From contig MU004196.1 in assembly GCA_010093605.1 (NCBI GenBank), positions 894,255-958,254 on the forward strand: 64,000 bases of DNA, in the 5' to 3' direction. The notes beneath the pieces were generated by a model. It had not been told where the DNA came from. It saw only the letters and a list, made by a program, of their open reading frames with translations, and ran no database searches. The DNA comes from Lophium mytilinum. Lineage: Eukaryota > Ascomycota > Dothideomycetes > Mytilinidiales > Mytilinidiaceae. The position numbers and the translations under genes are program-made. This document shows positions 659 to 59,711 of this stretch, in pieces (positions within the stretch are counted from its first letter, which is position 1; each line of letters begins with the position of its first letter).

Positions 659-1792
659 CTAAGGATTGAACATCACCGACTCACCCAGCCTACCAGATTT
701 CGCTGCCAGATCAAACGCCTTCTCCCACTCCTCAAGCTTGAAAGTACCTCGCACCTTGACGATACTCCTAACGTCCAGTATACCCGTGTTTAGCAAACTG
801 ATGAATGCCACATTGTCCGCTCGCGAATACATCCACTTTCCCCTCAACGTAATATCAAACCTCATCACGAACCTGTGCGGAATCGGCACATCTTCCAGGA
901 AGCCCCCCATAAGACTGACCCTCCCCTCCGGCCTCAAGCTTAGAATCGCCGCTCTGAAATGCGTCGACCCCTTCGCCTCCGCAGGCGAGATATCAAAAAA
1001 CGCATCAATCCTCCCAAACTTCTTCAACGCCGCCATCTCCTCCCCCAAATCCCCCGTCATCCTTACCGTCTCCACCCTCCCCCCCAACTCCCTCTTCAAC
1101 CCCTCCAACGCCTCCCCATTCCGCCCCATCGCAATCACCCTTGCCCCCATCGCCAACGCCACCACCACAGCCGCCGACCCAAACCCCCCGGTCGCCGGCG
1201 CCACAACCACCGTCTCGCCCGCCTGCACCCCAATACTCCGCAGCCCCCCATACGGCACCAGCGCCTGCAGCATCCACCCCAGCTGCTCGGTGCTATACCC
1301 CAGCCCGCCCTCGGCGGGGCTGCCACACAGCCTCGCCTCATCCAGCACATGCACGTTCTCGAGCGGCGCCTTCACGTACTCGGCAAACGTCGCGTCGCGC
1401 CACTCCCCCCGCATCAGCTTGCGGCTCGCCTCCGTCATGCCCTCGGCGATGCCCATGATGATGATGGCGCCCGGGTCGTCGCGCCCGCGCACGATGCCGT
1501 CGACGTAGACGAGGTCGTGCGGTTTGAGGAGGACGGAGTCCGGGCCGGTGGCGGCGACGCGGCCGATGGCGGAGGTGCCGGTCACGAGGGGGGTGGGGTA
1601 GGCGTAGGCGCGGGTGCCGTTGTAGACGTCGCGGAGGTAGGGCATTATGGGGGCGTGGAGGATCTTGATTATGGCGGAGCCGGGGGTTGGGAGGGGGGTT
1701 GGGAGGGTTTTGGCGATGAGGGGGGCGGCGTAGGTTTCTTGGACGAGGGCGGTGTGGGTTGGTGGGAGGGGGGTGGTTGTGGGAGTGGACAT
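659..1792 (-). CDS. MDR-family (zinc-independent) alcohol dehydrogenase / quinone oxidoreductase-like protein
   Basis: Single-exon 377-residue protein, ATG at 1792. The N-terminal half resembles the GroES-like fold of medium-chain dehydrogenases (PTPGSAIIKILHAPIMPYLRD, VTGTSAIGRVAATG). The C-terminal half is a Rossmann domain with a nucleotide-binding loop (VVVAPATGGFGSAAVVVALA, then GARVIAMGRN). The cysteine cluster that binds structural zinc and the usual Cys/His catalytic zinc ligands are not apparent, so a quinone-oxidoreductase-like NAD(P)H enzyme is likelier than a zinc alcohol dehydrogenase. Substrate unknown. Codon use is striking: the coding strand is C-rich at third positions in the 5' third (1792 to about 1450) and G-rich after that. 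This creates long antisense open frames on the plus strand, which are shadows. It stands alone, facing away from KEX1. Confidence 0.85.
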   Translation of the reverse strand: MSTPTTTPLPPTHTALVQETYAAPLIAKTLPTPLPTPGSAIIKILHAPIMPYLRDVYNGTRAYAYPTPLVTGTSAIGRVAATGPDSVLLKPHDLVYVDGIVRGRDDPGAIIIMGIAEGMTEASRKLMRGEWRDATFAEYVKAPLENVHVLDEARLCGSPAEGGLGYSTEQLGWMLQALVPYGGLRSIGVQAGETVVVAPATGGFGSAAVVVALAMGARVIAMGRNGEALEGLKRELGGRVETVRMTGDLGEEMAALKKFGRIDAFFDISPAEAKGSTHFRAAILSLRPEGRVSLMGGFLEDVPIPHRFVMRFDITLRGKWMYSRADNVAFISLLNTGILDVRSIVKVRGTFKLEEWEKAFDLAAKSGRLGESVMFNP

Positions 1793-3560
1793 TTTGGTGG
1801 ATGGTAGGGTGTTTGGAAGGAGACTTGAGGCGGATGTGAGAGTTTGATGAGACGATGAAGCTGGAGATGTTGCGATTGAAGTGATTTGGATATGAGAATA
1901 GAAGATCTCATGTCTCTTATATCATAGCAAAGTCAGGCCTCCCAACTGGTCGTCTTACTACCGAAATAGGCCTAAAGACCCTCCGATGAAGCCCTTGGAG
2001 CAAACATAAGCTTCACTAAGTAGACGTCCCCTACCGAAATAGCCGCAAACCCTTCGCTGTCGTCCCAAAACAGGTATGAGAGTAATCAACACAGTCGCCC
2101 CAGATCTTTTCGACGTACCATCGGCCGAGCAGTATCTCCGTGTACACAAGCTTGAAATCCTTCTTTGGCTTTTGGTGCCCTGCAGTAGCGTGGTTCATTC
2201 TTGCGTAAGAATCGGCATTTAGCGGAGTTAAGGAGTAGTGATATGGGCCGTTTGTCAGGTGTAGGTGTTTCGAGGATGGTTTTTAGCTTTTTGTATACTG
2301 TATAGGTACGATGCTAGAGGGGAGACGAAGCTGTACTGATCCGCGAGCTTTCAACCAGTATCACGTGACATTGTAGTTCTACTACAGTACCCCCTCTGTG
2401 CCAGTAGCATGAGACAAGTATATAGAAACGCGTAATCAAGTAAGGAACGAGGGAAGCTATAAATGAAAGACTCGCATATGGTAGAGCAACTAGGCATGAG
2501 AAGCACACGAGAAAGGTGCTCGAATATCAAAAGCAACACGAATAGCGAGGCGTTACCTCTCGTGAACTGGAAGGCTCGATTGACGGCTAAAGGTAAGCTT
2601 AAATATACATCCCCATACCGGATCTACAGGAAGACCGTCCTGCAGGAAGACTGTTCCACTGAAAGATGGTTGAGACAGAGGGAATGCTTGGTTGTTGACG
2701 GCTAAGATGGATGAAACACGAAGGATCTGTGAAGCTCTTTTTCATAGCTAAGGATAAGCTTCGATCTATTGAAAGAAGTGCTCATGCCGAATCCACAGAA
2801 GGATGAAAAGAGGGTCCTCTTCTGAGGGTACCTGAGACGTGGAAAATGTGAATTTCTTGCCCTATCACAATTCAGATATTCGGATAGCTCTAGAGCCGCC
2901 GCTGGGACCCGCCACAAGGGTTCCCGGAGCCTCTTCTCAGATCCGCAGGGTTAATGTTAGATGCTGGCGCAGGCTGAAGCAGGCGCTGCGTCGTCTCGGC
3001 GGCCTGAGGTTGGAGTAACAACGGGGTTCACAGAGGAGTGCAGCTGAAACTGGCGTGGAGTGCGGTATGGAGCAGAAAGCCAAGGCCGCGCAATAAATCC
3101 CCAGTGCCCCGGCCCCTTGCTGGCCCTTGTCGGTTGGTGGAATTCTAGGGCTAGTGGCTGTGAAGACAACAGGACAAAGCGTCGAGGGATTGCCCTTATT
3201 CACGCTCAATAGGCCTCTTAATACATTTCTGCACCAGGCCTGCTGCTGCTGGCCCGTCTAATACCTCCACCCTCCCCGTGCTTCTCTACGCCGCAATCTC
3301 GCCGGTCATTCATTCTTGTCAGCCGAAACCCAGGACTCGTGGCCTTTCAACCGTATTGCGGGCACAATCATAACCTCAAGACCTCGCCCCTTCTAAGCCA
3401 CGCGACCTGCCGACAGCGGACGGCACAGTTCCTAGAGCAACTACCCGTCAGATATCTCACCTGGCTCCTCCACACGCCAGGCCATATTCCATGCGATAGC
3501 TAGGGCTCTCCGGACTTCGACCGGCGTCACGTCGACGACGACCCTTGCTCCCCTCCCAGC
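1793..3560. other. Divergent intergenic region between the MDR gene and KEX1
   Basis: About 1.8 kb without a supported gene. Open frames of 60-90 codons at 1958-2149, 2463-2705, 2702-2917 and 2937-3209 show no family motif or splice continuation. The 3230-3560 stretch is pyrimidine-rich, as expected for the KEX1 promoter and 5' leader. Confidence 0.5.
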
Positions 3561-5637
3561 ATGCGCCTCTTCACACAATCACCCTCGCGATGGCGGAGTG
3601 GTGCTTCGTTGGCCGCGCTGGCCTGCAGTCTGTTCTACTCAGCAGCCCTGGTCCCTGGTGCCCTTGCGGAGAAGACGGCCGCAGATTACTACGTTCACGA
3701 ATTACCTGGGGCTCCGGAGCCACTATTGAAGATGCATGCAGGGTGCGTGGTACACCATCTTTGAAAGTACAAGATGAGCTAACTCGGGAGTAGTCACATC
3801 GAAGTCGATCCTGCGCATCATGGAAACATATTCTTCTGGCACTATCAGAACCGTCACATCGCGAATAAGCAAAGAACAGTAATATGGTTGAATGGAGGTC
3901 CAGGCTGCAGCTCCATGGATGGTGCTATGATGGAGATCGGTCCATACCGAGTAAGAGAAGGTGGAAAGCTGGAATACAACGATGGATCGTGGGACGAGTT
4001 TGCCAACGTTCTTTTCGTGGATAACCCTGTTGGAACAGGCTTCAGCTATGTGGACTCGAATAGCTATCTTCATGAGCTCGACGAGATGAAGGACCAGTTC
4101 ATCATTTTCTTGGAAAAATGGTTTGCACTCTTTCCAGAGTACGAGCACGACGACGTAGGTTTCATCAATCATAGGCATAGTATAGACATTGACGTAGGGA
4201 TAGATTTACATCGCCGGAGAGTCGTATGCTGGCCAACACATTCCATACATCGCCAAAGGGATCATCGAACGCAACCAAAACGCCAATAAGAGACCCTGGA
4301 AACTCGCTGGTCTGCTAATTGGGAACGGCTGGATCTCGCCCTTGGATCACTACTTCTCCTACCTTCCCTTTGCGTACGAAGAAGGATTGATAGAAGGAGG
4401 ATCCGAGGCGGCCAAACGTATCGAATCGCAAGTAGCCATCTGCACAAAGCTTCTCAACGAAGGCGCTAAGGACCACGTCGACACCTCCGAGTGCGAGAAG
4501 ATCATGATGGACATCCTCGACGAGACCAAAAACAAGAAAGCGGACTCAAAACACCAGTGCCTAAATATGTACGACATCCGCCTCCGAGACGACGACTCCT
4601 GCGGCATGAACTGGCCCCCAGACCTCGCAGACGTGACCCCCTACCTCCGCCGCCAAGACGTAATCGCCGCGCTGCACATCAACCCAGACAAGAAAACCGG
4701 CTGGCAAGAATGCAGCGGCTCCGTCTCGGCCAACTTCCGCGCCCGCAACTCGGTCCCCAGCATCGACTTCCTCCCGGACATCCTCGCCCACATCCCCGTC
4801 GTGCTCTTCTCCGGCGCCAAAGACCTCATCTGCAACCACCTGGGCACCGAGTCCCTCATCGGCAACCTCGAGTTCAACGGCGGCAAAGGCTTCGAGCTCT
4901 CCCCCGGCGTCTGGGCGCCCAAACGCGACTGGACCTTCGAAGGCGAGCCCGCGGGCATCTACCAAGAAGCCCGCAACCTCACCTACGTCCTCTTCTACAA
5001 CTCGTCGCACATGGTCCCCTTCGACTACCCGCGCCGCACCCGCGACATGCTCGACCGCTTCATGGGCGTCGACATCGGTTCCATCGGCGGCTCGCCCGCC
5101 GACTCGCGCATCGATGGCGAGAAAGGCCCGCTCATCTCCGTCGGCGGCCACCCGAACTCCACCACCGCCGCCGAGGCCGAGAAGGAGAAGCTCAAGCAGG
5201 CCACCTGGAAGGCGTACTACAAGTCCGGCGAGGTCGCGCTCGTTATCGTCATCATCGCTGCTGGGCTGTGGGGCTGGTACGTGTGGCGCGACCGACGGCG
5301 GCGCGCGGCGCTGGGGTATAAGGGGCTTGGGACTGGTGGCGAGGGTGAGGGGCGGGAGAGCCTTATGGCTGGGATGGGTCTGGAGAGCTTTAGGCGGAGG
5401 GATAGGGGGGATCGAGATGTTGAGGCCGCGGATTTCGATGAGAGGGAGTTGGATGAGGTGCCGAGTCCGCTGCCGAAAGCGACACCTAATGGGAGTGGTG
5501 CTGTGAATGGAGGCGCGGAGGGGAAAGAGAGGAGACGGTATAGTCAGGATGTGGAGCTGGTGGATGATGGGACGTTTAGTATCGCTGGGGAGAGCAGTGA
5601 CGGCGACGCGCCTGGGAGGAGTAGGGAGAAGGCGTAA
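3561..5637 (+). CDS. KEX1: Pheromone-processing carboxypeptidase Kex1 (serine carboxypeptidase S10)
   Basis: Three exons: 3561-3742, 3794-4154 and 4204-5637, giving 658 residues. Introns use GTGCGT/TAG and GTAGGT/TAG and restore the conserved joins MHAG-HIEVDP and [12 protein letters not shown]. Kex1 is a Golgi membrane carboxypeptidase that trims C-terminal Lys/Arg left by Kex2 on secreted precursors. Visible features are an N-terminal signal peptide (residues about 15-37), the [14 protein letters not shown] oxyanion motif, the nucleophile in GESYAG (Ser about 188), Asp in GAKDLICN (about 388), His in SSHMVPFD (about 450), and one transmembrane helix (about 524-545). A basic then acidic cytosolic tail follows. 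Length fits the family. Within exon 3, third positions are almost all C up to about 5220 and become G/T-rich in the tail. A 382-codon antisense open frame is a shadow of this bias. Confidence 0.95.
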
Positions 5638-6137: not shown

Positions 6138-8623
6138 TCACCAGAGCCAGGACCACTCCTCAGTCGACTCATAGGGAGACGAACTAGCCCGATAGTTGTG
6201 CTTAGGCTTAGCCTCGGCCGCAGATGGGGTTTCTTCCGCTGCTGGTTCTCCCTTGGCCTCGTCCGCTGGTGGCTTCGCCTGAACCGCTTCCACTGGTGCC
6301 TTTGCCTGAGCGTCTTCCACCGGTGGCTCTACCTTAGCCTTACCTCCATCCGCCCGTGACTCTGCTTTGATCTCTTTCACTGGTGGCTTCGACTGAGCCT
6401 CGTCCGCTGGTATAACCTGAGCCTCATCCGCTGGAATCGCCTGAACCTTATCCGCTGGAGTGGCTTGAGCGTCATCCGTTGGAATAGTCTGAACGTCATT
6501 CGCTGGAACAGCCTGAACCTTATCTACTGGCGTAGCCTGGGCCTCATCCACTGACATAGCTTGAGCTTCGTCCGCTGGTAGCATGGCCTGAACCTTGTCC
6601 GTTGGTGACTCTGTCCTGGCCTCGTCCGCTGATGGCTCTGTCTTAGCCTCGTCCGCTGATGGCTCTGTTTTGGCCTCGTCCGCTGGTGGAATCGCCTGAG
6701 AATCGTTCACTGTTGATACTGTCTCGGCCTTGTCTGCTAGCAGTTCTCCCTTAGCTTCTTCCACTGGAGACTCTGTCTTCGCTTCGTCCGTTGGTGGCAT
6801 CACCTGAGCATGGTCCGCTGGTGACTCTGTCTTGGCCTTGTCCGCTGGCGGGTCTCCCTTGGTGTCTTCCGCTGGGAGCATCGCCTGAACCTCTTCCGCT
6901 GGTGGCATTGGCTGAGTCTCATCCGCCAGCGGCTCTACCTTGGCGTCTTCCGTCATTGACTGAGCTTGAGCGTCTTCTGCTGTTGGCTTCTTCTGGGCCT
7001 CTTCCGCTGATGGCTTTGCCGGAGCGTCTTCTACAGGAGTCTTCACCTGAGCAATCTCCATTGGTGACTCTTCCTTAGTCTCTTCCATTGGCTCTACCTT
7101 AGCCTCTTCGACCGTTGACTTCGCCTGAGTATCTTCCGTTGGTGTCTGTGCCTTATTCTCTTCCATCAGTGACTTCGCCTGAGTTTCTCCCGTTGGTGTT
7201 TCTGCCTTGGACTCTTCCGCTTGTAGCTCGGCCTCAGTCTCTTCCACTGGTGACTCTACCTTGGCCTCTCCCGCTGGCGAATGTGCCTCTGCCACTGGCG
7301 AATGTGCCTCTGCCACTGGCGAATGTAAATCTTCCGCTGGCCAGTGTGCCTCTTCCACCGGCGAATGTGCCTCAGAACCACCACCACGAAAGTCCGCCAC
7401 TTCGCCTTTGTACTTCATGGCCAGCAGCTTCTGCTTATGATCATTTCTACCCAGCCAGCTGACATACCAAGACGGTTCGCCGTGCGTGATCCGGCATCTA
7501 GAATCCCACAGCTTATCCACAGACCCGCATTGACGCCAGTAGTTCTCATCGCCATCCCTACCTCTGCTCCGTTCCATGCAGTCGAGACACAAGCCATCGA
7601 AGTATGCTTCAGTGGCACGGACGGCACGGAAGACCACGCCAACCCAATTGATGTTGCAAGTAGTGCAATTGGGTGCGGCAGAGTGATGTTTGAATTGGCG
7701 TATGCGGTGCGTAATATCAGAGAGAGACGCGCGGTGGAGGAAGTCGTCCAAAGGGAACACCTCGAGGTTGACCAGTTCGGATAGGTATTCTGAGATGGTG
7801 ACTTTCCAGCACTCGCACAGGTGCGGAGTGCGCAGAAGGTTGCGAGGATGTAGCCAGAGGCGGGAATGCAGGATCGTCTTGAGGCGGACACGGGCCTGGT
7901 TCATGGCGCCTGTTGGGTTAGCATTACGTGAGTTATATGGGACACAGAGGAAACAAGAGATCGGGAGTGAGAGTAGGGTAAGGAATGAGGTGGAGTAGGT
8001 GGGAGAGTGCATCACCTACCAATGAAGTCTGGGAGTGCAAAACCAGGTCTGAACCTGATCTGAACCACTGGTTTCCTCTCCGTCATGGGTCCGCCATGGT
8101 TGTAGACAAGCCATTTTGTGACCTGTGCAAATCCTTCTGCGTGGTTAAACAAGTAGCAAGGTAGCACAAGTTCGCGGGCGATATCAAGCTTCAACGCGTC
8201 GAAGGAAACATTGCGGGCAAGCCAAGCGGCGAAGAAGTCCTTGAGATGGCCATTGGGATAGAATCCGTAGTTGTTACCAATTTCGATGATGCGCCACAGC
8301 TGGTGGCGTGGGATGTCCAACAGATCTTGCGGAACACGCCCGTGAAAGGTTCCGAGCCAGGCCTCCAAGCCGTCAAGAGTGTCTCCCCGGCGATCGAAAG
8401 TGATCAGATCCGCCTTAGGATCCTTGCGCCAGAGTCTGACAAAGTGATCGGCGCTCTTGAGGAGAATGGCCTTGTTGCATTCGAAAGTAGTAATCCGACT
8501 TGCCTCTTGACCAGCTTCCACATAGTATTCCGTGATCACGACAGTGACGTCGTTACGAGCATCGGGGTCGATGCCATTGCTGTCATTGCCGCCATTGGTC
8601 ACGGGTTGTGTAGAGCCCACCAT
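6138..8623 (-). CDS. BTB/POZ-like protein with a long 9-residue tandem repeat tail
   Basis: Two exons, 8623-8020 and 7909-6138, giving 791 residues. The intron (GTAGGT donor at 8019, CAG acceptor at 7910) joins PDFIG to GAMNQARV. An upstream in-frame ATG at 8707 would add 28 low-complexity Pro/His residues, so I prefer 8623. Residues about 20-160 resemble fungal BTB/POZ proteins (TFECNKAILLKSADHFVRLW, then an AWLGTFHG stretch), suggesting protein-protein interaction. A Cys-containing middle region follows (CTTCNINWVG, CLDCMERSRG). From about 7375 to 6225 the protein is a run of roughly 40 degenerate 9-residue units of the type ADEAKTEPS, some shortened to 8 residues, acidic and Ala/Pro/Glu-rich, then a short tail ending EEWSWLW. 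No pathway can be assigned. Confidence 0.75.
6225..7375 (-). repeat. Coding minisatellite, about 27-bp unit (9-residue repeat)
   Basis: The second exon of the BTB-like gene carries about 40 tandem units. On the coding strand a typical unit reads Ala/Val-Asp/Glu-Glu-Ala-Lys/Gln-x-x-x-Pro. Two adjacent units, ADEAKTEPS, are identical at protein level near 6630-6690. A run of 8-residue variants lies near 6390-6560. Three near-identical short units sit at about 7266-7325. Length changes occur in multiples of three, so the frame stays open. Unit divergence suggests an old array with limited recent expansion. Confidence 0.85.
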
Positions 8624-26460: not shown

Positions 26461-27700
26461 TTACACGTGTTTATCCAAGAAACTGTTCACAACCCCAAAC
26501 CACCCCGTCGCATTCCCATGCAAATTCATCCCATGCCCAGTATCCGGCTGCAAATAAAACTCCAACGGGCTCGCCTTCGCAAACAGCAACGGAGAGACCG
26601 AGTACGGCCCATCCAAAATCCCCTTACAATCCGCGCCACAGAAGATAAGATCAGAATCCCCGTCAATCATCTACGCCCTCATTAGCTCCGACCCTCAAAC
26701 CATAACAAAAACAGATTTAGACACGACTCACCAAAATCGGTCCCGTAAACGCCGTCGCCGCATACGGAATTTTCCCAAACGTCACCAGCTCGCCCAGCGT
26801 AAACGGGAACTTATGCGCCTCCGCATACTCCAGCACCGCCGGCTCGAAATTAGGATACTTAAGGAAGCTGTACTGGTTTGCGAACTTGTCGCCCCAGGTC
26901 AGGTACCCCGAGGAGCGCTTGCCGAAGCGCGCGGGCTGGTTTTCGGACGCGAGGTGGAAGCCGCTGGAGACTTCAAATAGCCCCTCGAAGGTGGTGTTGT
27001 GCGAGAAGCCGGTGAGCACGACGCCGTTGGAGAGGTCGGGCCGCGTGGCGATCAGCGCGTTGGAGAGCTGCGAGCCGTAGCTGTGGCCGACGTGGACGAT
27101 TTTCGCGGGCTTGGGGATCAGGTGGGAGAGCGTGCCGGATTTGAGGCCTTCGGTGAGGTGGGTTAGGAGGGCGAGCTCGAAGGGGGCTTGCACGACGTTG
27201 TAGGGGTCCTCGACGCTGGAGAGCCCGGTGCCGACACGGTCGTAGGAAAATGTGGCGTACCCTGCGGCAGTCGCAGCGGCGATGTAGTTGTACGTCGTTT
27301 TTGGGGCGCCGAAGTTCCAGTAGGTTTTGTCGAAGCCGAGGCCGTGGGTGAGAAGTTGCACTATTGGGGCTTTCTTGGGGTCAGGATGGGTCGTAGGAGT
27401 GCAGTAGAGCGCGCTGATGGAGAGGGGAACGGTGATGTTGCTTGGGGGTCCAAGGAGGGCGGATGGGTCGGCGGAGGCGTCGCGGTCTGTGAAAGCGAGG
27501 TTGAGAGCGGTTGATTCGTAGCCATTCTTGAGTGCAGGGAGGAGGAAGGGGTAGGAGGGGGCGGTGAGGGAGATGGAGAGGGTGAGGGGGATGCAGTCGG
27601 GTGAGTGGGGATTCGGGTGTGGGGTTGCGCTTGTGAGAAGGGGGAGGGAGAGAAGAGAGGAGAGTATGATGGGAAGCATTGTTAGAATGGATAGAGTCAT
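26461..27700 (-). CDS. Secreted alpha/beta hydrolase
   Basis: Two exons, 27700-26732 and 26670-26461, giving 392 residues. The intron (GTGAGT/TAG) joins TGPIL to MIDGDSDLIFCG. I prefer ATG 27700 over 27754 because it puts a clean signal peptide first (MTLSILTMLPIILSSLLSLP). The fold is seen in LLTHGLGFDKTYWNFG (oxyanion region), YDRVGTGLS, and the nucleophile elbow GHSYG (Ser about 207). GDSDLIFC fits the acid position and DTGHGMNLHGN supplies the catalytic His near the C-terminus. Several N-x-S/T sites fit secretion. Substrate unknown; related fungal proteins are annotated only as alpha/beta hydrolases. Third positions are C-rich for most of exon 1 and switch to G near 26900-26850. Confidence 0.85.
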
Positions 27701-31517: not shown

Positions 31518-33606
31518 CCGGAATTGAAGCTGATGGTTGCTTTCCCTTCTGAGGACTGCGGGGAATCAAATTCAGAGCACATGAGGCCATGATGAAGCAC
31601 TTTGACGACCAACCGGTTGCCTTCAACCTACTCTGGTAAGAATGAGAACTCTCTTCGAGGGACAACAGGATGAGAAGAAATTGCAATGTGTTGACTTTGA
31701 AAGGCTCACTTAAGAGAATTACTATACTAGAATTACCGACATTAATGCTTCAGCATCGACAAATCGGAAGCTAGCAAGCTTCATTGCATAGTAAAGCTAT
31801 AATCTTGTTTTCCTCCCCACACGGATTTTCTAGATGGACTATATTTGCGTCGCCTCTGCGTTGACAAGTACATCCACATACTGCTCGATGCGGTCGGATC
31901 CAACAGTCTGGTGCTTATGTGTTAACACTCACATTCTACGACCGGTACTACGACGCCACCACCACCACCACCCGCGAGGTGCCCTTTTACGTTCAAAAAA
32001 GACCTTTAGGTCAGTCGCATGAGTCCGTTCTCCGATTCTCACACAATGGGAGCAAGATGATCTGGCTAGTCTGGAGTCATACCGCAGAATACTGCTTTAT
32101 AGAAGACATTCAGGTGTATTGATAGCAACTCTTGATGCATCATCTCGGACCGCACCCGCACATACTTGTCCGTGTCTGTGAACTGGTCTCTGGCCTCTCA
32201 CTTCCTTATACCCAATCACCAACCTACGGACCGACAGGCTCTAGTAAAACTTCTTGTATAAAATTTACCATTAGGTCCTCCTTATTAACCGCTTCTTACA
32301 CGAAGCCTCTACCCTATTACTCCTATTACTCCCATTACTCCTATTACTCCCTTTACTTACACTTCTCACACTTCTTACACTTCTTACACTTCTTACACTT
32401 CTTACACTTCTTACACTTCTTACACTTCTTACACTTCTTACACTTCTTACACTTCTTACACTTCTCACACTTCTTATACTTCTTACACTTTTTATATTAC
32501 TTCTATTACTCCCATTACTTCTATTACTCCCATTACTCCCATTACTCCCATTACTCCCATTACTCCCATTACGCGTCCACTAAGCCCTCGTCCTCTAACC
32601 TCCCTTCATGTTCCAAAACGCATATATCATCCACGCCACGTGCAACAGCTCTCTGCGCTTCAAATAGTCCCCTTTAGTAATTGCGAGGTTATTATCCGGT
32701 ATTCATCAATTAGCCTAGTAGCGTAGATAGATAGAGAACTCCCTCGGCGATTGTTCTGTCCCCTGAGTAAAAAAGCTATTATCAACGATCAACAAACCCA
32801 AAAACGTCTGCTTTGTTCGCGCCGGACGACTACGTCCCAAAAAGAGATGCTAAAAGCGTAGAGGACAAGCATGTTAGCAATCACGCAACCCTCATTCCCC
32901 TACAAATAGCGCGGTAAGTCCCTGTTACCAATTGCGAACATACATCCCAAGAGCGCCTTCACAGCATCATCAAACCATCGGACCCAAAATATTCATTTCG
33001 CACTACCAATACACCCGCCCACCGGGCCCTCTATTACAACAACCCGCCACACCGCAAACCCCATACCCGCACCGCCCGCAACCGTCCTCGCAACCATGCC
33101 GGGGCAGCAACCACTCAAGAAAGAATATCACAATAAAGGATTCCCCCCCAAGAAACCCCAACCCTTTCCCCGAACCGGCACCGCACCCTCTGACCCCAGA
33201 TCCCCGCCCCTGCACATGCGAACAAAAGAAATAATTTGATTCCCAGAAAAGTAAAAGTCCCGGCCCCCTTAACCCGGGCCGGCCGTTTCTAACCCAGTAA
33301 AAAAGCGCCTTTTCGCTCTTCTAAAACCTGTAAGTTTCCCCTGATTTCGAATTCCCTGTAGGCGACGTGTATGTTGCTGCACTAGCACACGTGCTCTCGT
33401 TTTTCTTATTCTCGATAAAACGCCGTATTTCATGCATGCTTTCGGTTCGTGATTTGTAGTTTTGTTGGTTTCTTTAGATGTTTCAGTGTGTTGTTCGGTG
33501 TTGCGTTGCGTTGCGTCGGCTGAGGCGGCTGTCTGGTTTATTGATAGGAAAGCCACAGCAGCCCGGCGCCGACTAGCGCGACGAGAGTCCACTCCATCAA
33601 AGATAG
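31518..33606. other. Gene-poor region around a satellite
   Basis: About 2.1 kb. Contains the 9-bp-unit array at 32314-32572 and a C-rich, G-poor stretch at about 32930-33230. The open frame at 32132-32677 is repeat-encoded (HFL and HYS units) and is not called a gene. No other feature recognised. Confidence 0.5.
32314..32572. repeat. Satellite of 9-bp units, plus strand free of G
   Basis: Outer parts are repeats of CTATTACTC/CCATTACTC. The core (about 32354-32490) is a run of CTTCTTACA with a few C/T variants. All units are 9 bp, so the two types are probably related. The plus strand has no G from about 32306 to 32573. Confidence 0.9.
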
Positions 33607-35976: not shown

Positions 35977-37248
35977 ATGACCTCCACACCCCGCCGATCG
36001 CGGCGCTCCCATCCAAACCTCACCCACCTCTCCCTCGCACCCCTCTCCTCCAAATACCCCCTCGACGCCTCGACACCCCCCTCCCCCTCCTCCCCAACCG
36101 CCCAAACCCCCTCCTACATCGCCAACCGCTCCGCCCCAACCACCCCAGGAATCCTCTCCCTCTCCCAATCCCGCAGCACCTCTGCAACCCGCTCCCGACG
36201 CCGCCCCAAAACCCCAACCGCCGCCTTCGCCCACGACGGCTACTTCCCCGCCACACCCACCGAAACCCCGCAACGCGCCGTCGGCGAGATCCCCAAGGCC
36301 AAAAGCACCAGCGTGCTCGTCCCCGGCCTCTCCTCCATCACTACGCCCGCGACCCTCGCCATCGCCGGCGAGGGCAAGAAGCGCCACCACCTCCGCACCC
36401 GCACCGGCGGCGACTTCCGCCTCCCGACCCCGCTACAACGCCACCACACAACCCACGAGGCTGCTGACGAGTGGCTGCACCGCGCAGGCCTGGCGATTGC
36501 GGGCGAGACGCGCGAGAGCAAGGGCCAGAGCTGGCTGGTGCGCCGCGCGAGCTCGACGAGTTTGGTGCGGCAGAGCGATGGGTGGGATGAGCATCCTAGC
36601 CACGAGCATGAGGGGGTGCAGCTCATGAAGTTGTTATCGGGCGAGCATTTTGAGGGCGGCGAGGCTGGGTGGGTCAGCAGTCCGAGGGTGCTGTCGCGGT
36701 TTGGGAGTCGGGCGGGGAGCAGGATACAGAGTGCGAGGGGGAGTCGGAGGGGGTCGAGGGTGTGGGGGAGTAAGGGGGATTTGGGCGGGATGACATATGT
36801 GCCAGGGGGTGGTGGGGAGGAGGGGTATTTTGGGGAGGAGGTGGTGGAGGCGGATTTTGTGGGGAGTGATGAGGAGAGTGTGGGGGATGAGGAGGAGGTG
36901 GCGAGGTTGGCGAGGGAGAGGGGCTTTGGTTTGGGTGGGTGGATGGACCGGTTAATGGGGTGGACGCTGTTCAGTGTTGAGGAAGATGGGGAGAGTAGTG
37001 ATGAGGAGGGAGAGGAGGAGGAGGAGGCGCTGACGAGGGAAGAGGTGTTGTTGAAAAAGGAGGTGGAAGCAAAAAGGAGAAAGATGGAGCGGGAGACTAT
37101 CATTGCCGCTTCGGCGGCGGGATCTAAGGGGAAAGAGGTTGAAAACGAGAATGATGTCCCAATACCAGAGCTTGTCCCGGCGGAAGGTGAGGGTGGGTGG
37201 CAGGATGCTGCATGGCTTCTGAGCGTTGCATCAAAGGTCCTTTTGTGA
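35977..37248 (+). CDS. DUF3984-like fungal protein
   Basis: Single exon of 423 residues. ATG 35977 is chosen over 35845 because the conserved start MTSTPRRSRRSHPNLTHLSL follows it and the upstream part is a pyrimidine-rich leader. SHPNLTHLSLAPLSSKYPLD, then SAPTTPGILS, GYFP, AADEWLHRAGLAIAGETRES and QSWLVRRASSTSLV is the pattern I associate with PF13136 (DUF3984). The protein is basic and Ser/Thr/Pro-rich at the N-terminus, Gly/Ser/Arg-rich in the middle and strongly acidic with a possible coiled coil in the last 130 residues. No catalytic motif or membrane segment. Function unknown. Third positions are nearly all C up to about 36530 and nearly all G afterwards, the clearest such switch in the window. 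The 346-codon antisense frame is a shadow. Confidence 0.8.
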   Translation: MTSTPRRSRRSHPNLTHLSLAPLSSKYPLDASTPPSPSSPTAQTPSYIANRSAPTTPGILSLSQSRSTSATRSRRRPKTPTAAFAHDGYFPATPTETPQRAVGEIPKAKSTSVLVPGLSSITTPATLAIAGEGKKRHHLRTRTGGDFRLPTPLQRHHTTHEAADEWLHRAGLAIAGETRESKGQSWLVRRASSTSLVRQSDGWDEHPSHEHEGVQLMKLLSGEHFEGGEAGWVSSPRVLSRFGSRAGSRIQSARGSRRGSRVWGSKGDLGGMTYVPGGGGEEGYFGEEVVEADFVGSDEESVGDEEEVARLARERGFGLGGWMDRLMGWTLFSVEEDGESSDEEGEEEEEALTREEVLLKKEVEAKRRKMERETIIAASAAGSKGKEVENENDVPIPELVPAEGEGGWQDAAWLLSVASKVLL

Positions 37249-40633: not shown

Positions 40634-40638
40634 CCATG

Positions 40639-40742: not shown

Positions 40743-41922
40743 ATGGCTGACAACGCTGCTCATTCAGACCACGAGACACCGGTTAAGGCTAAGGTTAAAG
40801 GGGCCATTAAATTCCTTAAAGCCAAAGGCATAAAGGGGCAAAAGGAGGATGTTTTTAGGCACTTTAAAGTGTCCCATACCGAGGGCTATTAGATGCTCTC
40901 AAATCACCTAAGAAGACACTATAACAATCCTGAAGTGGAGGAGAATAGGGGCAGGAAGTCCCTTATCTCTTAGCAGGACCTAAAGAACATGGAGGGTATT
41001 CTTAAAGAGCATAGCTTCTCAGCAAGAGCATTTAGCTGGGAGCAGCTAGCCTATAAAGCTGGCATAGAGGATCAGTATAGGGATATTATAGCTGGCAAGA
41101 CTATTAAGCGTGTAATAGGTAGAATAGATTATCACAAGTGCATTGCCTGCAAGAAAGAATGGGTAAGTAATAGTATAGTAAAGAATTAAAAGGAGTATGC
41201 CAAAGTTATGCTTAAGAGGTACCTAGAACTAGAGAATTAGTGGAGAGTTTACTTTTCAGATAAATGCCATTAGGGCATTAGACCACAAGGTACATTTCTT
41301 ATGCCTTAGCGTTTAATTCTTATGCTTCGGCGTCCAATTCTTATGCTCTACAGGCAAGCTTTAAATTATCTAAAAACCAGGTGAACGCTACTGCCATAAT
41401 TGCATTCAACAAGAGGATAATCGGCAGGTAGAGAATGCTCAAAAACGGCTGCATTCTTAGGCTGCTGCCGGCCATAACTTTATATCTCTATTGCATTTCT
41501 ACAATATTCCAAGTAATAAGAATAGGAAGATAACACACGTGGGGTATATTGATATTCTTAACACCATGGTAAAGCCCTGGCTTAATGCTAAAGAGAACTT
41601 TATCTTAGAGGAAGATAGGGATTCTAGGCATGGCATAGGCAAGAAGAACATTATTTAGACGTAGAAAGAAGAGAATAGTCTTAAATCATACTTTAATTGT
41701 TATAATTCACTAGATCTAGCCCCTATTAAGAACTGCTGGCAGCCTCTAAAGCAGTATATTAAGAAGTTCCCTCACTGGGATAAGGATACAACAAGAGAAT
41801 TAGCTTAAGAAGGATGGGATAAGATAAGAAGAGACTATTCATTCATTAATTGAAAGGTGGACTTAATGCCTAAGAGGCTGCAGGCTGTTATTAATCAGGA
41901 CGGCCAATTGACAGGCTACTAG
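40743..41922 (+). pseudogene. Transposase remnant (Tc1/mariner-like), inactivated
   Basis: Reading starts MADNAAHSDHETPVKAKVKG, with a helix-turn-helix-like N-terminus, then FSWEQLAYKAGIEDQYRDII and GRIDYHKCIACKKEW. Catalytic-core traces follow: YFSDKCH, LHFYNIPSNKNRKITHVGYI, FILEEDRDSRHG, LAPIKNCWQPLKQYI and LMPKRLQAVINQDGQLTGY. Many in-frame stops interrupt it, including TGG-to-TAG changes inside the HS*AAAGHNF and II*T*KEEN blocks. The expected acidic residue in API(E)NCW is Lys. At least one frame slip lies near 41290-41370. It cannot encode a working enzyme. Confidence 0.8.
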
Positions 41923-42050
41923 CTAGTGAATGTATATTTGTGTCCCATATTATGCTCCTGTAACATCTGCATGCTGCTGGCCATTAATTTGGCTGTATTC
42001 CTCGTACAAAGTTGATGGTTGAGGCATTTGGTGGTCGCGGCGTCATTTCG

Positions 42051-42079: not shown

Positions 42080-42084
42080 CCATG

Positions 42085-49362: not shown

Positions 49363-49556
49363 TAAGTGGACTTATCAAAGAAGGTGGAGAGCTCATATAC
49401 TGATTACTTGATAGGGTTCGTTAGAGAATTTGATCCTGTCTACGAAGCTTAAGAAACCTTCCCGTTGTTGTATCATTCTGCCGCCTTACCTCCATTTCGG
49501 TCGTCTTCAATTACCTCTTTACTCGAAAGCATTTGCTCGAACAAAAGTTGCTCAAC

Positions 49557-50627
49557 ATGGCTAAAGACAATGACGCGACTAACGACAGCATCTGGCTCTA
49601 CACCCCCTCCACCGCCCTCGCCATCGTCGTCGCGACCCTCTACCTCATCCCCACCTCCCTCCTCTTCTACCAAACCATCCTCAAATACCGCAGCTGGTTC
49701 TTCCTCTGCGTGCTCATCGGGAGCTGTCTCGAAGTCGGGGGCTACATCGCGCGTGCCGTGAGCACGAAGCAAGTCACCGAGATCGTGAGTAGCCTTCCCC
49801 CTTCCCCATCTCAAAGAAAAAGATGACGACTGCTGAGGTCGATACTGTTGTGGATACTGACGTTTCATGCCAGCCCCCCTTCGCCGCCTCCTCAACCCTC
49901 ATCATCCTCGCCCCGATCTTCGTCGCCGCGGGAAACTACCTCCTCATCGGTCGCCTGATCCGCGTCGTCCTCCCGCCCCCCTCTGCGTCTGCCACAGCAA
50001 CTGCTTCCACCTCATCTGCCAAGCGCATCTTCGGCCTCCGCGCGCAGCATATCACCCGCATCTTCGTTGGCTGTGACGTTCTTTCCTGCTTGATCCAAGC
50101 CTCGGGCTCTGGCATCGCGTCGTCGGGCAATTGGACCGGGAACAGCGCGAAAGTGGGCACGGATGTGCTGATAGCGGGACTGAGCACGCAGGTGGGGACG
50201 TTTGTGTGGTTCCTCGCTATCGTGTGGAGATTCTCGGTACTGACTAAAAGAGGGGGTTTGGTGGTGGACGGGGCGCCGGAGGGGTGGCTGAAGGTGTTAT
50301 GGGCCATTTATGCGAGTAGTGCGTTGATTCTAGTGAGTTCTGTTCAACCTAGGTGTATTTGGAGCTAGGTGGTGGTGGTGGTGGACTAAGTTGCTGAGTT
50401 GATTGGTGTGTTAGGTCCGCTGCGTTTATCGAGTCATCGAGTTTGCGCTTGGGATTGATGGATACCCGTTCACGCACGAGTGGGTATTTTACGTGTTTGA
50501 GTCGCTGCCGATGTTGCCGGCTATCTCGGTGTTTTGCGTGTATCATCCGGCAAGGTATTTGGGAAAGGCTGGGTGGCTGCAGAAGCAGGTGAGCGAGGAG
50601 CCGGGGGTGGAGTTGCTGCCAGCTTAG
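49557..50627 (+). CDS. RTA1-domain membrane protein
   Basis: Three exons, 49557-49784, 49874-50332 and 50415-50627, giving 299 residues. ATG 49557 (MAKDNDATNDSIWLYTPSTA) is preferred to 49533. There are seven hydrophobic segments. SCLEVGGYIARAVST, APIFVAAGNYLLIGRLI, RIFVGCDVLSCLIQASGSGI and VYRVIEFALGIDGYPFTHEW, then YVFESLPMLPAISVFCVYHP are hallmarks of the RTA1 family (PF04479). These are fungal lipid-translocating or stress-resistance membrane proteins such as Rta1, Rsb1 and Pug1. Substrate not predictable. Introns use GTGAGT donors with CAG/TAG acceptors. Third positions are C-rich to about 50100 and G-rich afterwards. Convergent with the Zn2Cys6 gene. Confidence 0.92.
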
Positions 50628-54814: not shown

Positions 54815-55948
54815 GTTCGACGGCGACTTTGGCAAGCGAGGGGCCCACGCTACAGAGATCGATTGATGGAGGATATCGAAGAGAGCTTAGAGAGAAGGTG
54901 ATGTGGAGGGAAACGTAGGTAGTATTGAAGTGTATAGTCGGCTCTATTCACGGCTACAACTACAAGATGATTTGGAACGAATGTCAATACAGCCTCAGGG
55001 GAAAGCGCAGCGGTTCAACGTCCTTAAGAGAAATTCCTCACACTCCGCTTTCCCTTTCCAAGAGGTTTCCAAGAGGCTTCCAAGAAGCTAAGACGAGGCT
55101 GAAAAGATCAGACTCAAGGGTCTGGTCTTTGTAACCTCCTCAGCGCCTTAATTCTGAGCAAAAGACCAAGCATCCTTGCAAGAGAAGATGCTCCTAGAGG
55201 TTATACTGGCTAGGTCTAGATGAAAAGGTACGGAGATGCCCACTGGGCCTCGGCTGAGAAAGCCTAACTCACCGGCCATGCAGGTCGCGCAATTTTTAGA
55301 GCCTTACTAACCCACTAAAACGACTCCGGATGTTTAATTTTTAGGGTCGTGCATCTTAATAGTTGGGGCTAAAAGGTGGTGGCGCTTGCTGGATCCTGGC
55401 GATGGAAGGGAGTTAGGCCTACCCGAGACACAAGCCCCGTGAATGTGCCGATATCGTAGCAAAACGGGCTGGATAGCCAGGGGGATGGCATCTCCATCTT
55501 GACCGGTCGACAGTCGCGTGCTGATGATCGCTAAATGTCCTTGCTGGGCCTCCTTTCTAGGATTTATAAGCCTATCTTGGGATTTAGTAAGGTCCCTATT
55601 GCGAAAATAGATAATATCAGAATTCTCCGGTCAACGCGAACCCAGTAATGGAAATAAGAAGGGTCATCAAGTGGACTGGACTTCGCAGAGAAGCTGCTTC
55701 GTACCTGCATCGAAATGTGTCGTGATGTAAGACGCGTAGTTGGTGCCGGAGGAAGTTGAACGCCACTTTGTGTGCCAAGAAGAGTGTAGCATCGCCCCTG
55801 CATTCGGCCCCCAACGATAGCCGTGCTCGTCTTATTCCCGTATTTCAAGATTGCTTAAACCTTCAAGCCTCTTTCTATCCGGCCCCATACACACTCAGTG
55901 GTCTACTCCGTTGCTGTGCGCTTTGCTTACATTGACATCATCTACAAT
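54815..55948. other. Divergent intergenic region
   Basis: About 1.1 kb. A roughly 11-bp unit containing TTCCAAGAGG is repeated three times at about 55043-55085. The frame at 55564-55848 (minus) has no motif. No gene recognised. Confidence 0.45.
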
Positions 55949-56572
55949 ATGCCTATTCTCGAGGTCTGCCTGCTGCGACTGAAAGATGGACTGTCAGCCT
56001 ACGACCATGCATTACTCAAGACTCTGTCTACAGTACGATCGGTCCTGAAGACTGACTCCAAGTTCTATAACTGCATCGAAGACCCATCTCTCGTCTACAT
56101 CCTGGGAATATGGCCGACTCACGAAGCCCATAAAGCTTTTCTTGCATCACCTGAGAAGGAGAAGGTCCTTGGCCCACAAGAGGATCAGCTTGAATTCCAA
56201 TGGATACTTCACATGGAGCTTGACGACATATCATTGTTGCCTCTGGACGCACCGGTTATGGCGATAGCGAGGCTATTTATAAAAGGAGGCAAGCACATCG
56301 AGGAGTACAATCGGATAGTGAGCAAATATCGAGCAACCATTGTGGACGGGACCAAGCCGTACAACGTAGTCGATGGGTGGAGGAGCGACTCGGAGCCTGG
56401 GAAACAAGAAGCACTCATGTTCTCTGGTTGGGCGAGCATAGAAGCACACAGGGCATTCACGGCAAAGATGAGAGGAGAGGAGGATTATGCAAGTGTGCGT
56501 AACAACTACGAAGGGATGGAGGTTCGACATGCCCGAGATATGGAACGAATCGCCAGAATACCGCAGGAATAG
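55949..56572 (+). CDS. ABM-like dimeric alpha/beta-barrel protein
   Basis: Single exon of 207 residues. ATG 55949 (MPILEVCLLRLKDGLSAYDH) is chosen over 55898 because the domain begins right there. Two repeats of the ferredoxin-like pattern are visible. The first is VCLLRLKDG with LVYILGIWPTHEAHKAFLAS, the second is IARLFIKGG with ALMFSGWASIEAHRAFTAKM. This is how fungal antibiotic-biosynthesis-monooxygenase/Dabb-type proteins look. Many have no proven enzyme activity, so a catalytic role is not claimed. No signal peptide or membrane segment. Confidence 0.75.
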   Translation: MPILEVCLLRLKDGLSAYDHALLKTLSTVRSVLKTDSKFYNCIEDPSLVYILGIWPTHEAHKAFLASPEKEKVLGPQEDQLEFQWILHMELDDISLLPLDAPVMAIARLFIKGGKHIEEYNRIVSKYRATIVDGTKPYNVVDGWRSDSEPGKQEALMFSGWASIEAHRAFTAKMRGEEDYASVRNNYEGMEVRHARDMERIARIPQE

Positions 56573-57133
56573 GCTTTGCTTTGGCCATCTCTCCTCCGCA
56601 TTAGCATATCAGATCTCTTCGGCAATCGACACTAATCTTTCATATTGTCAAAGACACCTCAGGGTGCACGATTGCTAACGTTGTTCGCCTAAAACTCTAG
56701 TACTTTCAAACTAGGGCAATACAGGTATTATACGAAAAATACAATTAGGCAAGAATGAAAGCTATCGCAAAGATTCCTATTTAGGTATTGTACTGGCCGC
56801 CTTGTGCTTCAAAATCTCGGCTTCATGTTGTTCATCACCGAGGGCTACCAAGTACTTACCTCGCATGTCAGAGCGGAACAGCCGCAGCCCACTGTTTATA
56901 TTGACTATTCCCTGACGATACCCTTGCAGGAAGATCCCGAGTTACTGCCAGCTTGAGCAGGCTCGTTCTCACCTTGATAAGACTTAGGGTTAACCCCGCA
57001 GTTACGTTGCATCGTACCAAAGTACTCGCTACCATGCATCTTCGGATCTCAAGCCGCTTTCCTCGCAGCTTAATACTCCGAACGCCACCTTGGGCTTCCC
57101 TGCAGTAGAGCCCTTTCTTCCTCACTTTTCAGG
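56573..57133. other. Intergenic region 5' of the GH92 gene
   Basis: 561 bp, A+T-richer. No gene recognised. Expected to hold the GH92 promoter. Confidence 0.45.
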
Positions 57134-59711
57134 ATGCTCAATTCACGCTCTACGTCAATTGCTATCCTCCTACTCTTCGCCCATACTTGGACAACATCTG
57201 CCAATAAATTTGAGAAGCGCGTAGGCGACTTCGATCCTCTTGCCTATGTCAATCAATTGATCGGTTCTACCAATGACGGAAACGTATTCGCAGGTGCGAC
57301 ATTGCCCTATGGAATGGCCAAGGCCGTCGCCGACGTGAATGGTCAAAATACGGGAGGATTTGCCTTCGACGGCAGCAATGTCACTGGTTTCTCGAGGTAT
57401 GGAGTTTTTCTAGTATCTAATGTTGCATCCAAAATTGACTTTCGACAAGCTTGCACGACTCAGGCACTGGAGGCAACCCATCACTGGGCAATTTTCCTCT
57501 ATTTCCACAATACTGCCCAGAAAACGAACTGGACAATTGCAATTTCCCAATTACTTCCCGCGCTACTCCCTATCTCAACGACTCGGTTAAGGCCAGCCCA
57601 GGCTATTTCGCATTGTCATTGGAGAATGGTATCCACGCGGAGATGACCGCAGCTCAACACGCTGCATTGTACCACTTTAGCTTTCCCTCCAAGAAGTCGA
57701 GTAATGGATCGGCATTGAATCCACTCATCATGCTCGACCTGACGGACCTGTGGGCGAGTAGACAAAATGCGTCAATCAGTATAGATGAATCCACAGGAAG
57801 AATGAAAGGCAATGGCACTTTCCTTCCCAGTTTTGGCGCTGGGTATTATGTTGCACATTTCTGCGTTGACTTTGCTGGAGCATCGATCCTCGACTCGGGA
57901 GTTTGGGTCAACAACCGAGCTGACACCGAGCCTAAGGAGTTGTTCGTTACGAGGGGTTTCAATCTGTTCTATCTCCAAGCTGGTGGATTCGTGAGATTCA
58001 ATGGTCCCATCGAAGATAACTTAACCGCAAGAGTTGGAGTGAGCTTCATTAGTGCAGATCAAGCATGTCAAAATGCGGAGAAGGAAATACCAGGCCCAGA
58101 CTACGACTTTGAAGGCATTAAGAGCAAGGCAGAGGATGCATGGAGAGAAAAACTCTCGCCCATCTCGATTGAAGCTGGAGGCGTGAACGAGACGATGCAA
58201 ACAAATTTCTACAGTGGAATGTACAGGACTATGATCTCACCACAGGATTATACTGGAGAAAACCCTAATTGGGAGACCTCAGAACCGTACTTTGACTCCT
58301 TTTACTGGTAAGTTTGTCAATGTAAATCCGAAAGCAGGTCCTTACAAGCACTGCTAATCTATGTCCCACCAGCATTTGGGATGCCTTCAGGGTACAGCAC
58401 CCCTTCTTAACTATTGTTGATCCCGTCGCGCAATCGAAAATGGTCCGCAGTCTCCTTTCCACATACCAACACGAAGGCTGGCTCCCGGATTGCCGCATGA
58501 GTTTATGCAAAGGCTGGACGCAAGGCGGGTCCAACGCCGACGTCGTCATTGCTGATGCCTACATAAAGAACCTCACAGGCATCGACTGGGATCTCGCCTA
58601 TCAAGCAGTTGTCAACGACGCTGAGAATGAGCCCCTTGAGTGGTCCTATGAAGGCCGCGGCGGGTTGCAAAGCTGGAAGCGCTACAACTACATCCCCTAT
58701 CTCGATTTCGACTACCTTGGGTTTGGAACGAACTCGAGAAGCATTTCCAGAACTCTTGAGTATTCCTACAACGACTACTGCATCTCAACACTGGGGAAAG
58801 GCCTTGGAAAGGATGAATACACAAAATACCTCTCCCGAGCCGGGAACTGGCAAAACCTTTTCAAAGCAGACCAGAAATCCCTCATCAATGGCACAGACAC
58901 CGGCTTCACTGGCTTCTTCCAACCAAAATACCAGAACGGCACCTGGGGCTACCAAGACCCGATCGCCTGTAGCCCGCTCACAGATTTCTGCTCCCTAACC
59001 TCCAACCCCTCCGAGACCTTTGAGTCGTCCGTATGGGAATACCTCTTGTAGGTCCCCTGCCCTCTATTTCCCATCCTCATCCTCCATGGACTAACCAACC
59101 TCACCAACCCCAGCTACGTCCCCCACGACATGCCCACCCTGATCACCCTCCTCGGCGGCCCCACCTCCTTCATCGCCCGCCTCGACTACTTCCACACCTC
59201 CGGCCTCGCCGACATCGGCAACGAGCCCGTCTTCCTCACCATCTTCCAGTACCACTACGCCGGCCGCCCCGCCCTCTCCGCCGAGCGCGCCCACTACTAC
59301 CTCCCCTCGCGCTTCTCACCCACCCCCGGCGGGCTGCCCGGCAACGACGACTCCGGCGCCATGGGCGCCTTCACCGTCTTCGTGATGATGGGCCTATTCC
59401 CGAACCCCGGGCAAGACGTGTATTTCATCATCCCGCCGTTCTTCGAGAGCGTGAGCGTGCGGAGCCCGCAGAGCGGGAAGACAGCCACGATCCGGAATGT
59501 GAATTTCGATGGGGGGGAGTATAAAAATATCTATGTTCAGAACGCGACGTTGAATGGGGAAGTGTATACGAAGAGTTGGGTAACGCATGATTTCTTCGCG
59601 CAGGGGTGGACGCTGGAGTTGGTGCTGGGGCCGGTGGAGAGTGCGTGGGGGACGAGGGAGGAGGATTTGCCGCCCGGTGGTGTTGGGGAGGGGGGGATGG
59701 GGGGTTTGTGA
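57134..59711 (+). CDS. Secreted GH92 alpha-mannosidase
   Basis: Four exons, 57134-57396, 57450-58307, 58373-59047 and 59114-59711, giving 797 residues (sum divisible by three). Signal peptide at residues 1-23. GH92 enzymes are calcium-dependent exo-alpha-mannosidases, mostly acting on alpha-1,2 links. Typical blocks are GDFDPLAYVNQLIGSTNDGN, FAGATLPYGMAKAVADV, HDSGTGGNPSLGNFP, YSGMYRTMISPQDYTGENP, FDSFYCIWDAFRVQHPFLTI, GWLPDCRMSLCKGWTQGGSN, a VFLTIFQYHYAGRP block, and LPGNDDSGAMGAFTVFVMMG near the C-terminus. Joins at the second and third introns restore FYCIWD and LFYVPHD. Several N-x-S/T sites fit secretion, and a role in N-glycan or mannan turnover is likely. In exon 4, third positions are almost all C to about 59435, then G. 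The 163-codon overlapping frame is a shadow. Confidence 0.93.

What the first reader, a model, noticed from the sequence alone, without database searches (positions are those of the whole stretch)
659..59711. Abrupt switch from C-ending to G-ending codons inside six unrelated genes
Seen directly: the coding strand uses almost only C at third positions upstream, then switches over a short distance to G (or G/T) for the rest of the gene. Approximate switch points are MDR near 1450 (minus), KEX1 exon 3 near 5230, alpha/beta hydrolase near 26880 (minus), DUF3984-like near 36530, RTA1 near 50120 and GH92 exon 4 near 59435. It follows the direction of transcription on both strands and is independent of function. 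It also explains most of the long antisense frames. MES1, SGO1 and the kinase do not show it clearly. A transcription-linked, strand-asymmetric mutation or repair process changing along the gene body is one possible cause. I do not know of a named description.
Basis: partly seen in the sequence, partly recalled or inferred. Interest (0 to 1): 0.7.

Follow-up and report, generated by a model that had tools for sequence, protein, structure and literature searches.

The report
Abrupt C-to-G codon switches in genes
In this fungal genome some genes change sharply, each at a point of its own, from codons ending in C to codons ending in G; introns change too, so a process acting on DNA rather than a choice of codons seems to be the cause, and the form is far sharper than the weak average trend already published for fungal genes.

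Summary
The six change-points are 1442, 5265, 26861, 36459, 50119 and 59459; for each, 0 of 1000 synonymous-codon shuffles reach the observed value. A GC-skew scan without gene models gives the same six as the window's largest upward jumps and finds similar points on 200 kb of another contig. Of 66 coding segments, 11 switch C-to-G at p<=0.002 and 2 switch the other way. The unit is a point with a C-rich and a G-rich arm of about 0.7 kb. Codon positions 1 and 2 and 11 of 12 nearby predicted introns go the same way. Two-fold codons show an A>G and C>T excess on one strand, mirrored across the point. Direction is no evidence for transcription, because C|G is its own reverse complement. A weak averaged form is published (McLean and Tirosh 2011); this abrupt form is a stronger variant. 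Best reading, unproven: outward error-prone DNA synthesis from long-lived break sites inside genes (0.35). Transcription (0.30) and replication initiation (0.17) stay open; that the skew fades within 150-300 bp outside the coding region speaks for a gene-bound process.

The parts
659..1792 (-). MDR-type (zinc-binding dehydrogenase) gene; switch at 1442
   Evidence: C3 0.83 before, G3 0.71 after, z 13.8
4204..5637 (+). last exon of a KEX1-like serine carboxypeptidase; switch at 5265
   Evidence: C3 0.68 before, G3 0.56 after, z 9.4
26732..27700 (-). alpha/beta hydrolase, first modelled exon; switch at 26861
   Evidence: C3 0.68 before, G3 0.56 after, z 12.5
26671..26731 (-). predicted intron on the 3' (G-rich) side of the hydrolase point
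   Evidence: C6 G22
35977..37248 (+). DUF3984 gene; switch at 36459
   Evidence: C3 0.75 before, G3 0.58 after, z 12.3
49874..50311 (+). RTA1-like gene, exon holding the switch at 50119
   Evidence: C3 0.63 before, G3 0.52 after, z 8.5
49785..49873 (+). predicted RTA1 intron on the 5' side, nearly without skew (against the reading)
   Evidence: C23 G21
50312..50414 (+). predicted RTA1 intron on the 3' side, strongly G-rich
   Evidence: C10 G39
59114..59711 (+). last exon of a GH92 gene; switch at 59459
   Evidence: C3 0.79 before, G3 0.62 after, z 7.7
59027..59113 (+). predicted GH92 intron on the 5' side, C-rich (one search drew it 66 bases long instead)
   Evidence: C35 G12
   Evidence: jump 0.63; C42 G12

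Best explanation
SHOWN: each switch is the centre of a C|G dyad, a point with a C-rich arm on one side and a G-rich arm on the other, about 0.7 kb each inside genes, at all three codon positions and in predicted introns. To the right of the point the strand read left to right prefers G over A and T over C; to the left it is the mirror image. INFERRED: the points are long-lived sites inside genes from which DNA is repeatedly re-synthesised outwards in both directions, most likely after double-strand breaks whose 5' strands are resected and filled in again. G-T wobble errors in the newly made strand (G opposite T gives A>G, T opposite G gives C>T), accumulated over long times, would give this mirrored pattern. 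A small extra AT-to-GC bias (factor 1.2-1.5) and some transversions towards G would raise GC at the centre. The limit at gene ends would follow if the process needs the sequence similarity between homologues that genes keep and intergenic DNA loses.
For: Point-anchored arms, fading by 800-1000 bp; GC 0.60 at the centre of 31 upward jumps against 0.52 beyond 500 bp. Two-fold codons 150-600 bp from the point, 15 genes: C/(C+T) 0.81-0.91 on the 5' side and 0.20-0.35 on the 3' side (baseline 0.59), G/(G+A) 0.34-0.42 and 0.85-0.90 (baseline 0.57); strand-asymmetric factor 3.0 and 4.5, with bootstrap intervals clear of 1. 11 of 12 predicted introns within 600 bp have the expected sign. Flat gene starts far from the point (esterase gene). 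A Spo11-type match and six MutS-homologue places make recombination possible. Exonic recombination hotspots are known in Zymoseptoria (1435 of 2578 in Z. tritici exons, passage in PMC5844332).
Against: No break, recombination or mutation data of this species. Polarity is opposite to the human meiotic-hotspot asymmetry as I read it (PMC7615360), so it needs errors in the new strand instead of damage in the single strand. The skew fades within 150-300 bp outside the coding region although it reaches further inside genes, which a plain break model does not predict. No shared motif at the points. Z. tritici, the fungus with exonic hotspots, shows weak or no GC-biased conversion. Spo11 and MutS hits show no activity, and one MutS place carries 15 stops in the matched frame.
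Confidence: 0.35

Rival explanations
1. Transcription-coupled mutation or repair that changes along the gene (the McLean-Tirosh idea), or sense and antisense polymerases that start or meet at a fixed point inside the gene.
For: The published fungal trend has the same sign. Genes without a strong point show it weakly here (skew -0.16 to -0.01 from first to last fifth, second half higher in 36 of 46 segments). The skew fades within 150-300 bp of the coding ends.
Against: Point positions are tied neither to the start nor to the stop (165-1877 bp and 215-1258 bp away); starts more than 1 kb away are flat in 5 of 5 genes; one strong point at C1:1,004,775 looks non-coding, though an unrecognised transcript is possible.
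Confidence: 0.3
2. Replication initiation inside genes: an S-jump in which error-prone synthesis near an origin leaves G and T excess on the right and C and A excess on the left.
For: Same polarity, GC rise and 2-kb scale as reported for human origins (passages of PMC9645720). TA skew also moves upward, from -0.10 to +0.06 at 200-400 bp. Strong points about every 19 kb (14 jumps of at least 0.7 in 264 kb).
Against: No skew beyond 1 kb that is specific to the points: downward control points gave the same right-left difference (that script stopped early). The gene-end limit is unexplained. Origin positions are unknown.
Confidence: 0.17
3. Ordinary GC-biased gene conversion at recombination hotspots, without strand asymmetry.
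For: GC peak at the points; AT-to-GC factor 1.5 on the 5' side, interval above 1.
Against: On the 3' side C/(C+T) falls below baseline (0.20-0.35 against 0.59) and the AT-to-GC factor of 1.2 cannot be told from 1.
Confidence: 0.05
4. Selection on codons, translation or protein composition.
For: The pattern is strongest at third positions, and amino-acid-coding positions shift too.
Against: Predicted introns and near flanks share the sign; most genes of the same families lack it; synonymous shuffles exclude amino-acid order as cause.
Confidence: 0.05

Closest known systems
Opposite GC skews at the 5' and 3' ends of fungal genes (McLean and Tirosh 2011, PMC3315797; parts 1-3 of 4 read)
   Same: Coding strand C-biased towards the 5' end and G-biased towards the 3' end, also at fourfold sites, with an effect on amino acids and some spread into flanks.
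   Different: Theirs is averaged over genes, graded, tied to gene ends, with flat AT skew. Here a minority of genes carry an abrupt, point-anchored form with GC rise, and A/G and C/T preferences flip together.
S-jumps and mutagenesis at human replication origins (Murat et al. 2022, PMC9645720; outline and passages seen)
   Same: Local GC rise and base-composition skew around a point, domain of about 2 kb, strand-biased errors.
   Different: No origin is shown here; no skew beyond 1 kb specific to the points was found.
Strand-asymmetric mutagenesis at human meiotic break hotspots (PMC7615360; passages and legends seen)
   Same: Mirrored strand-asymmetric changes on the two flanks of a centre, with A>G and C>G among the types, on a scale of 1-2 kb.
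   Different: As I read it the polarity is opposite, and the human data are new mutations, not standing base composition.
Exonic recombination hotspots of Zymoseptoria (PMC5844332; passages seen)
   Same: Hotspots inside exons of a filamentous fungus, 2578 in Z. tritici.
   Different: GC-biased conversion weak or absent there; no skew dyad in the passages seen.

Membership tests
McLean-Tirosh fungal intragenic GC-skew gradient | coding strand C-biased at the 5' end, G-biased at the 3' end | tested here: met
McLean-Tirosh fungal intragenic GC-skew gradient | also at fourfold sites and in flanks | tested here: met
   fourfold sites; flanks for about 150 bp only
McLean-Tirosh fungal intragenic GC-skew gradient | graded ramps tied to start and stop | tested here: not met
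   sigmoid fits better in 14 of 14 genes tested, AIC gain 2.8 to 66.1, five of them below 6; gene-specific positions. Genes without a strong point do show a weak gradient
McLean-Tirosh fungal intragenic GC-skew gradient | flat AT skew along the gene | tested here: not met
   third-position A exceeds T on the 5' side and T exceeds A on the 3' side within 600 bp
McLean-Tirosh fungal intragenic GC-skew gradient | weak correlation with expression | not testable with these tools
   no expression data
Replication-origin S-jump | GC and TA skew jump upward together | tested here: met
   200-400 bp: GC skew -0.41 to +0.43, TA skew -0.10 to +0.06
Replication-origin S-jump | skew continues over the replicon | tested here: inconclusive
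   hint equalled by downward control points, which stopped before its last controls
Replication-origin S-jump | mapped replication origin | not testable with these tools
   no origin data
GC-biased gene conversion hotspot | AT-to-GC bias on both sides of the centre | tested here: inconclusive
   factor 1.5 on the 5' side (log-odds 0.17 to 0.63), 1.2 on the 3' side (-0.07 to 0.51)
Meiotic break hotspot with human-type mutagenesis | C>N and A>N on the forward strand to the left of the break | tested here: not met
   composition here implies the excess on the right; human polarity as read
Meiotic break hotspot of any type | breaks or crossovers concentrate at the point | not testable with these tools
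   no cross, population or break data held

The most novel reading that the evidence does not exclude
A filamentous fungal genome carries hundreds to thousands of fixed points inside genes, readable from raw sequence as C|G dyads, at which outward-running error-prone DNA synthesis (break repair or replication start) has for long times imposed a mirrored A>G/C>T bias, so that codon choice and even amino acids record where DNA breaks or starts to be copied inside genes.
Probability: 0.45. Interest if true: 0.78.

Novelty: new variant of a known kind. Interest (0 to 1): 0.57.

Why it matters
If the points are break or replication sites, they could be mapped from sequence alone in any genome that shows them, and codon bias, GC3 and even protein composition of these genes would have to be read as a record of DNA metabolism and not of selection. 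Codon-adaptation indices, antisense open frames and tests of selection could mislead in such genes. Even if the cause is transcription, the abrupt form gives a sharper test of the 2011 fungal skew hypotheses than gene averages do.

Tried and rejected
Codon or amino-acid selection: not supported, because of shuffles, introns (38, 39) and same-family genes without the switch (32). Direction as evidence of transcription: dropped, since C|G equals its own reverse complement. GC-biased conversion alone: rejected by two-fold codons (63). A motif at the centres: over 31 foci the commonest 6-, 7- and 8-mers were no commoner than the commonest in 60 block shuffles (57); single words such as GACGAC (15 foci, 4.75 expected) stood out but were not tested for multiple looks. 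Replicon-scale skew: a hint was equalled by downward control points; that script stopped with an error before its isolated-control and circular-shift steps, which were not rerun. Mating-type family PF04769: no match, but no control genome rang either, so uninformative (55). Literature: searches missed the prior description, one search found it; one search lists 4 papers with its title phrase (itself, two fungal mitogenome papers, one on brain abscess); one search was off topic. The gerbil paper uses 'GC skew' for AT-to-GC excess, not for strand skew.

Rows dropped: the profile uses 16 of the 28 foci modelled (the rest lacked a convincing gene model); one search tests 14 genes, of which C1:1,064,288 is weak (p 0.039); searches use those 14 plus the esterase gene, whose point (59250) I set by eye. 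The focus gene models used third positions, so they serve for introns and profiles and not as proof of a switch; the 66-segment test used a caller blind to third positions. No intron is confirmed by transcripts.
Full report
WHAT WAS CHECKED. Its genes (HET, RTA1, DUF3984, GH92) point to a filamentous ascomycete (recalled, not tested). Positions on C1 below are 1,000,000 plus the position in that stretch.

THE SWITCH IS REAL. Third codon positions go from mostly C to mostly G. Change-points are 1442, 5265, 26861, 36459, 50119 and 59459; for each gene 0 of 1000 shuffles of synonymous codons reach the observed value. Pfam confirms all six coding strands. A scan for GC-skew jumps that knows no genes returns the same six as the largest upward jumps of the window. 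On C1 most of the 15 strongest jumps shown (output partly cut) lie in open frames whose third positions go from C to G.

HOW COMMON, AND ONE-WAY. A caller that ignores third positions gave 66 segments of at least 120 codons. With 500 synonymous shuffles each, C-to-G switches reach p<=0.05 in 29, p<=0.01 in 20 and p<=0.002 in 11; G-to-C switches in 5, 3 and 2; z exceeds 5 in 8 against 1. The single reverse case above z 5 is the outer edge of another dyad: an esterase gene on C1 that is flat, then C-rich, then G-rich. Among the 17 homology-located loci only KEX1 and one MFS gene (L031) show the switch in the matched exon, so many conserved genes lack it.

ANATOMY. Around 16 points with gene models, third-position C is 0.62-0.65 within 400 bp on the 5' side and G is 0.55-0.58 within 600 bp on the 3' side; both fade by 800-1000 bp. 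With 400-bp arms and a jump of at least 0.5 there are 31 upward points in 264 kb (12 in the window, 19 on C1) and 36 downward ones. GC is 0.60 at the upward centres and 0.52-0.53 at 500 bp; downward centres have 0.49, and several of them are outer edges of upward points. Codon periodicity (largest phase at least 1.4 times the mean; my count) is seen in 22 of 31 upward and 14 of 36 downward points. One strong upward point, C1:1,004,775, is skewed in all three phases alike; the longest open frame there is 164 aa and three frames gave no Pfam match, so it may be non-coding.

INTRONS AND OTHER POSITIONS. Of 12 predicted introns within 600 bp of a point, 11 have the expected sign (my count). Strong ones: C10 G39 and C6 G22 on 3' sides; C35 G12, C42 G12 and C38 G18 on 5' sides. 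Nearly flat ones: RTA1 C23 G21 and C1:1,123,905 C16 G14. One has the wrong sign (C1:1,089,400, C11 G32), in a model that scores hardly better than the other strand. Pooled intron skew is -0.43 at 200-400 bp on the 5' side (358 bases), +0.06 at 400-600 bp on the 5' side (80 bases), +0.26 at 0-200 bp and +0.60 at 200-400 bp on the 3' side (167 and 104 bases). Codon positions 1 and 2 shift in the same direction, so proteins are affected. No intron is confirmed by transcripts.

WHAT KIND OF CHANGE. At two-fold codons 150-600 bp from the point, in 15 genes, C/(C+T) is 0.81-0.91 on the 5' side and 0.20-0.35 on the 3' side, baseline 0.59; G/(G+A) is 0.34-0.42 and 0.85-0.90, baseline 0.57. Split into two parts (100-600 bp), the strand-asymmetric factor is 3.0 on the 5' side (log-odds -1.46 to -0.83, bootstrap over genes) and 4.5 on the 3' side (1.20 to 1.88); the AT-to-GC factor is 1.5 (0.17 to 0.63) and 1.2 (-0.07 to 0.51). 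An excess of A>G and C>T on one strand, mirrored across the point, dominates. At fourfold sites C or G reaches about 0.7, so transversions must contribute too (inference).

DIRECTION. C-rich|G-rich is its own reverse complement. Any such point inside a gene reads C then G along the coding strand, whatever the gene's orientation. The argument from both strands therefore says nothing for or against transcription.

WHERE IT STOPS. For 9 genes whose stop lies within 700 bp of the point the skew is +0.67 in the last 50 codons, +0.27 in the first 150 bp after the stop and -0.01 in the next 150; for 9 genes whose start lies within 700 bp it is -0.62 in the first 50 codons, -0.34 in the 150 bp before the start and +0.06 in the 150 before that. 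In 33 models without a strong point the values are +0.03 and -0.06 after the stop, -0.19 and -0.04 before the start. At like distances inside longer genes third positions are still strongly skewed. This speaks for a gene-bound process, or for one that needs the similarity of genes between homologues; neither was tested. Against a skew tied to the gene start, 5 of 5 genes whose modelled start is more than 1 kb away have flat first codons; some of these starts are model limits and not proven starts.

PRIOR WORK. McLean and Tirosh 2011 (PMC3315797; parts 1-3 of 4 read) report that most unicellular fungi they studied have coding strands C-biased at the 5' and G-biased at the 3' end, averaged over genes, with flat AT skew, and propose transcription-phase mutation or CTP economy. 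Genes here without a strong point show just that weak trend: skew -0.16 in the first and -0.01 in the last fifth, second half higher in 36 of 46 segments. Whether strong points and weak trend are one continuum is open. I found no description of the abrupt form in ten searches of an open-licence library; subscription papers were not searchable.

MECHANISM. Three causes fit the mirror image: outward fill-in synthesis after breaks, replication start, and transcription that starts or collides at the point. If a strand newly made outwards collects G-T wobble errors, it gains A>G and C>T, the observed polarity. Human meiotic hotspots show, as I read the passages, the opposite polarity, explained there by damage in single-stranded DNA and translesion synthesis (PMC7615360). 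Human origins show skew jumps, a GC rise and a 2-kb domain (PMC9645720). I found no skew beyond 1 kb specific to the points. A Spo11-type match and six MutS-homologue places, one of them full of stops in frame, make recombination possible and no more. I put break repair at 0.35, transcription at 0.30 and replication start at 0.17. The dyad and its spectrum are shown; the initiating event is inference.

Noticed in passing
window 6262-7373 (-): A large open frame (6141-8015) without a Pfam match holds degenerate tandem repeats of 21-27 bp and their multiples, read as repeated acidic units; its third positions are A/G-rich over the repeats.
   Followed up: partly
window 32313-32572: Arrays of 9-bp repeats (CTTACACTT about 15 copies, ATTACTCCC about 9 copies); one 100-bp stretch from 32460 holds no G at all.
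   Followed up: no
window 41001-42000: AT-rich kilobase (GC 0.382 against 0.526 for the window).
   Followed up: no
L009:4475-5175 (C1:1,004,475-1,005,175): Strong C|G point (jump 0.88) equally skewed in all three phases, without a long open frame or Pfam match; G reaches 0.60 in one 100-bp bin and the arm ends abruptly 400 bp to the right.
   Followed up: partly
L019:3272-4944 (C1:1,103,272-1,104,944): A gene with a CCCH-type zinc finger near its end in which third positions go C, G, mixed, then up to 0.88 G, then flat, as if two points lay in one gene.
   Followed up: partly
L033, near position 1660 (C18 locus): An upward skew jump of 0.70 inside an MFS open frame whose third positions look flat; not explained.
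   Followed up: no
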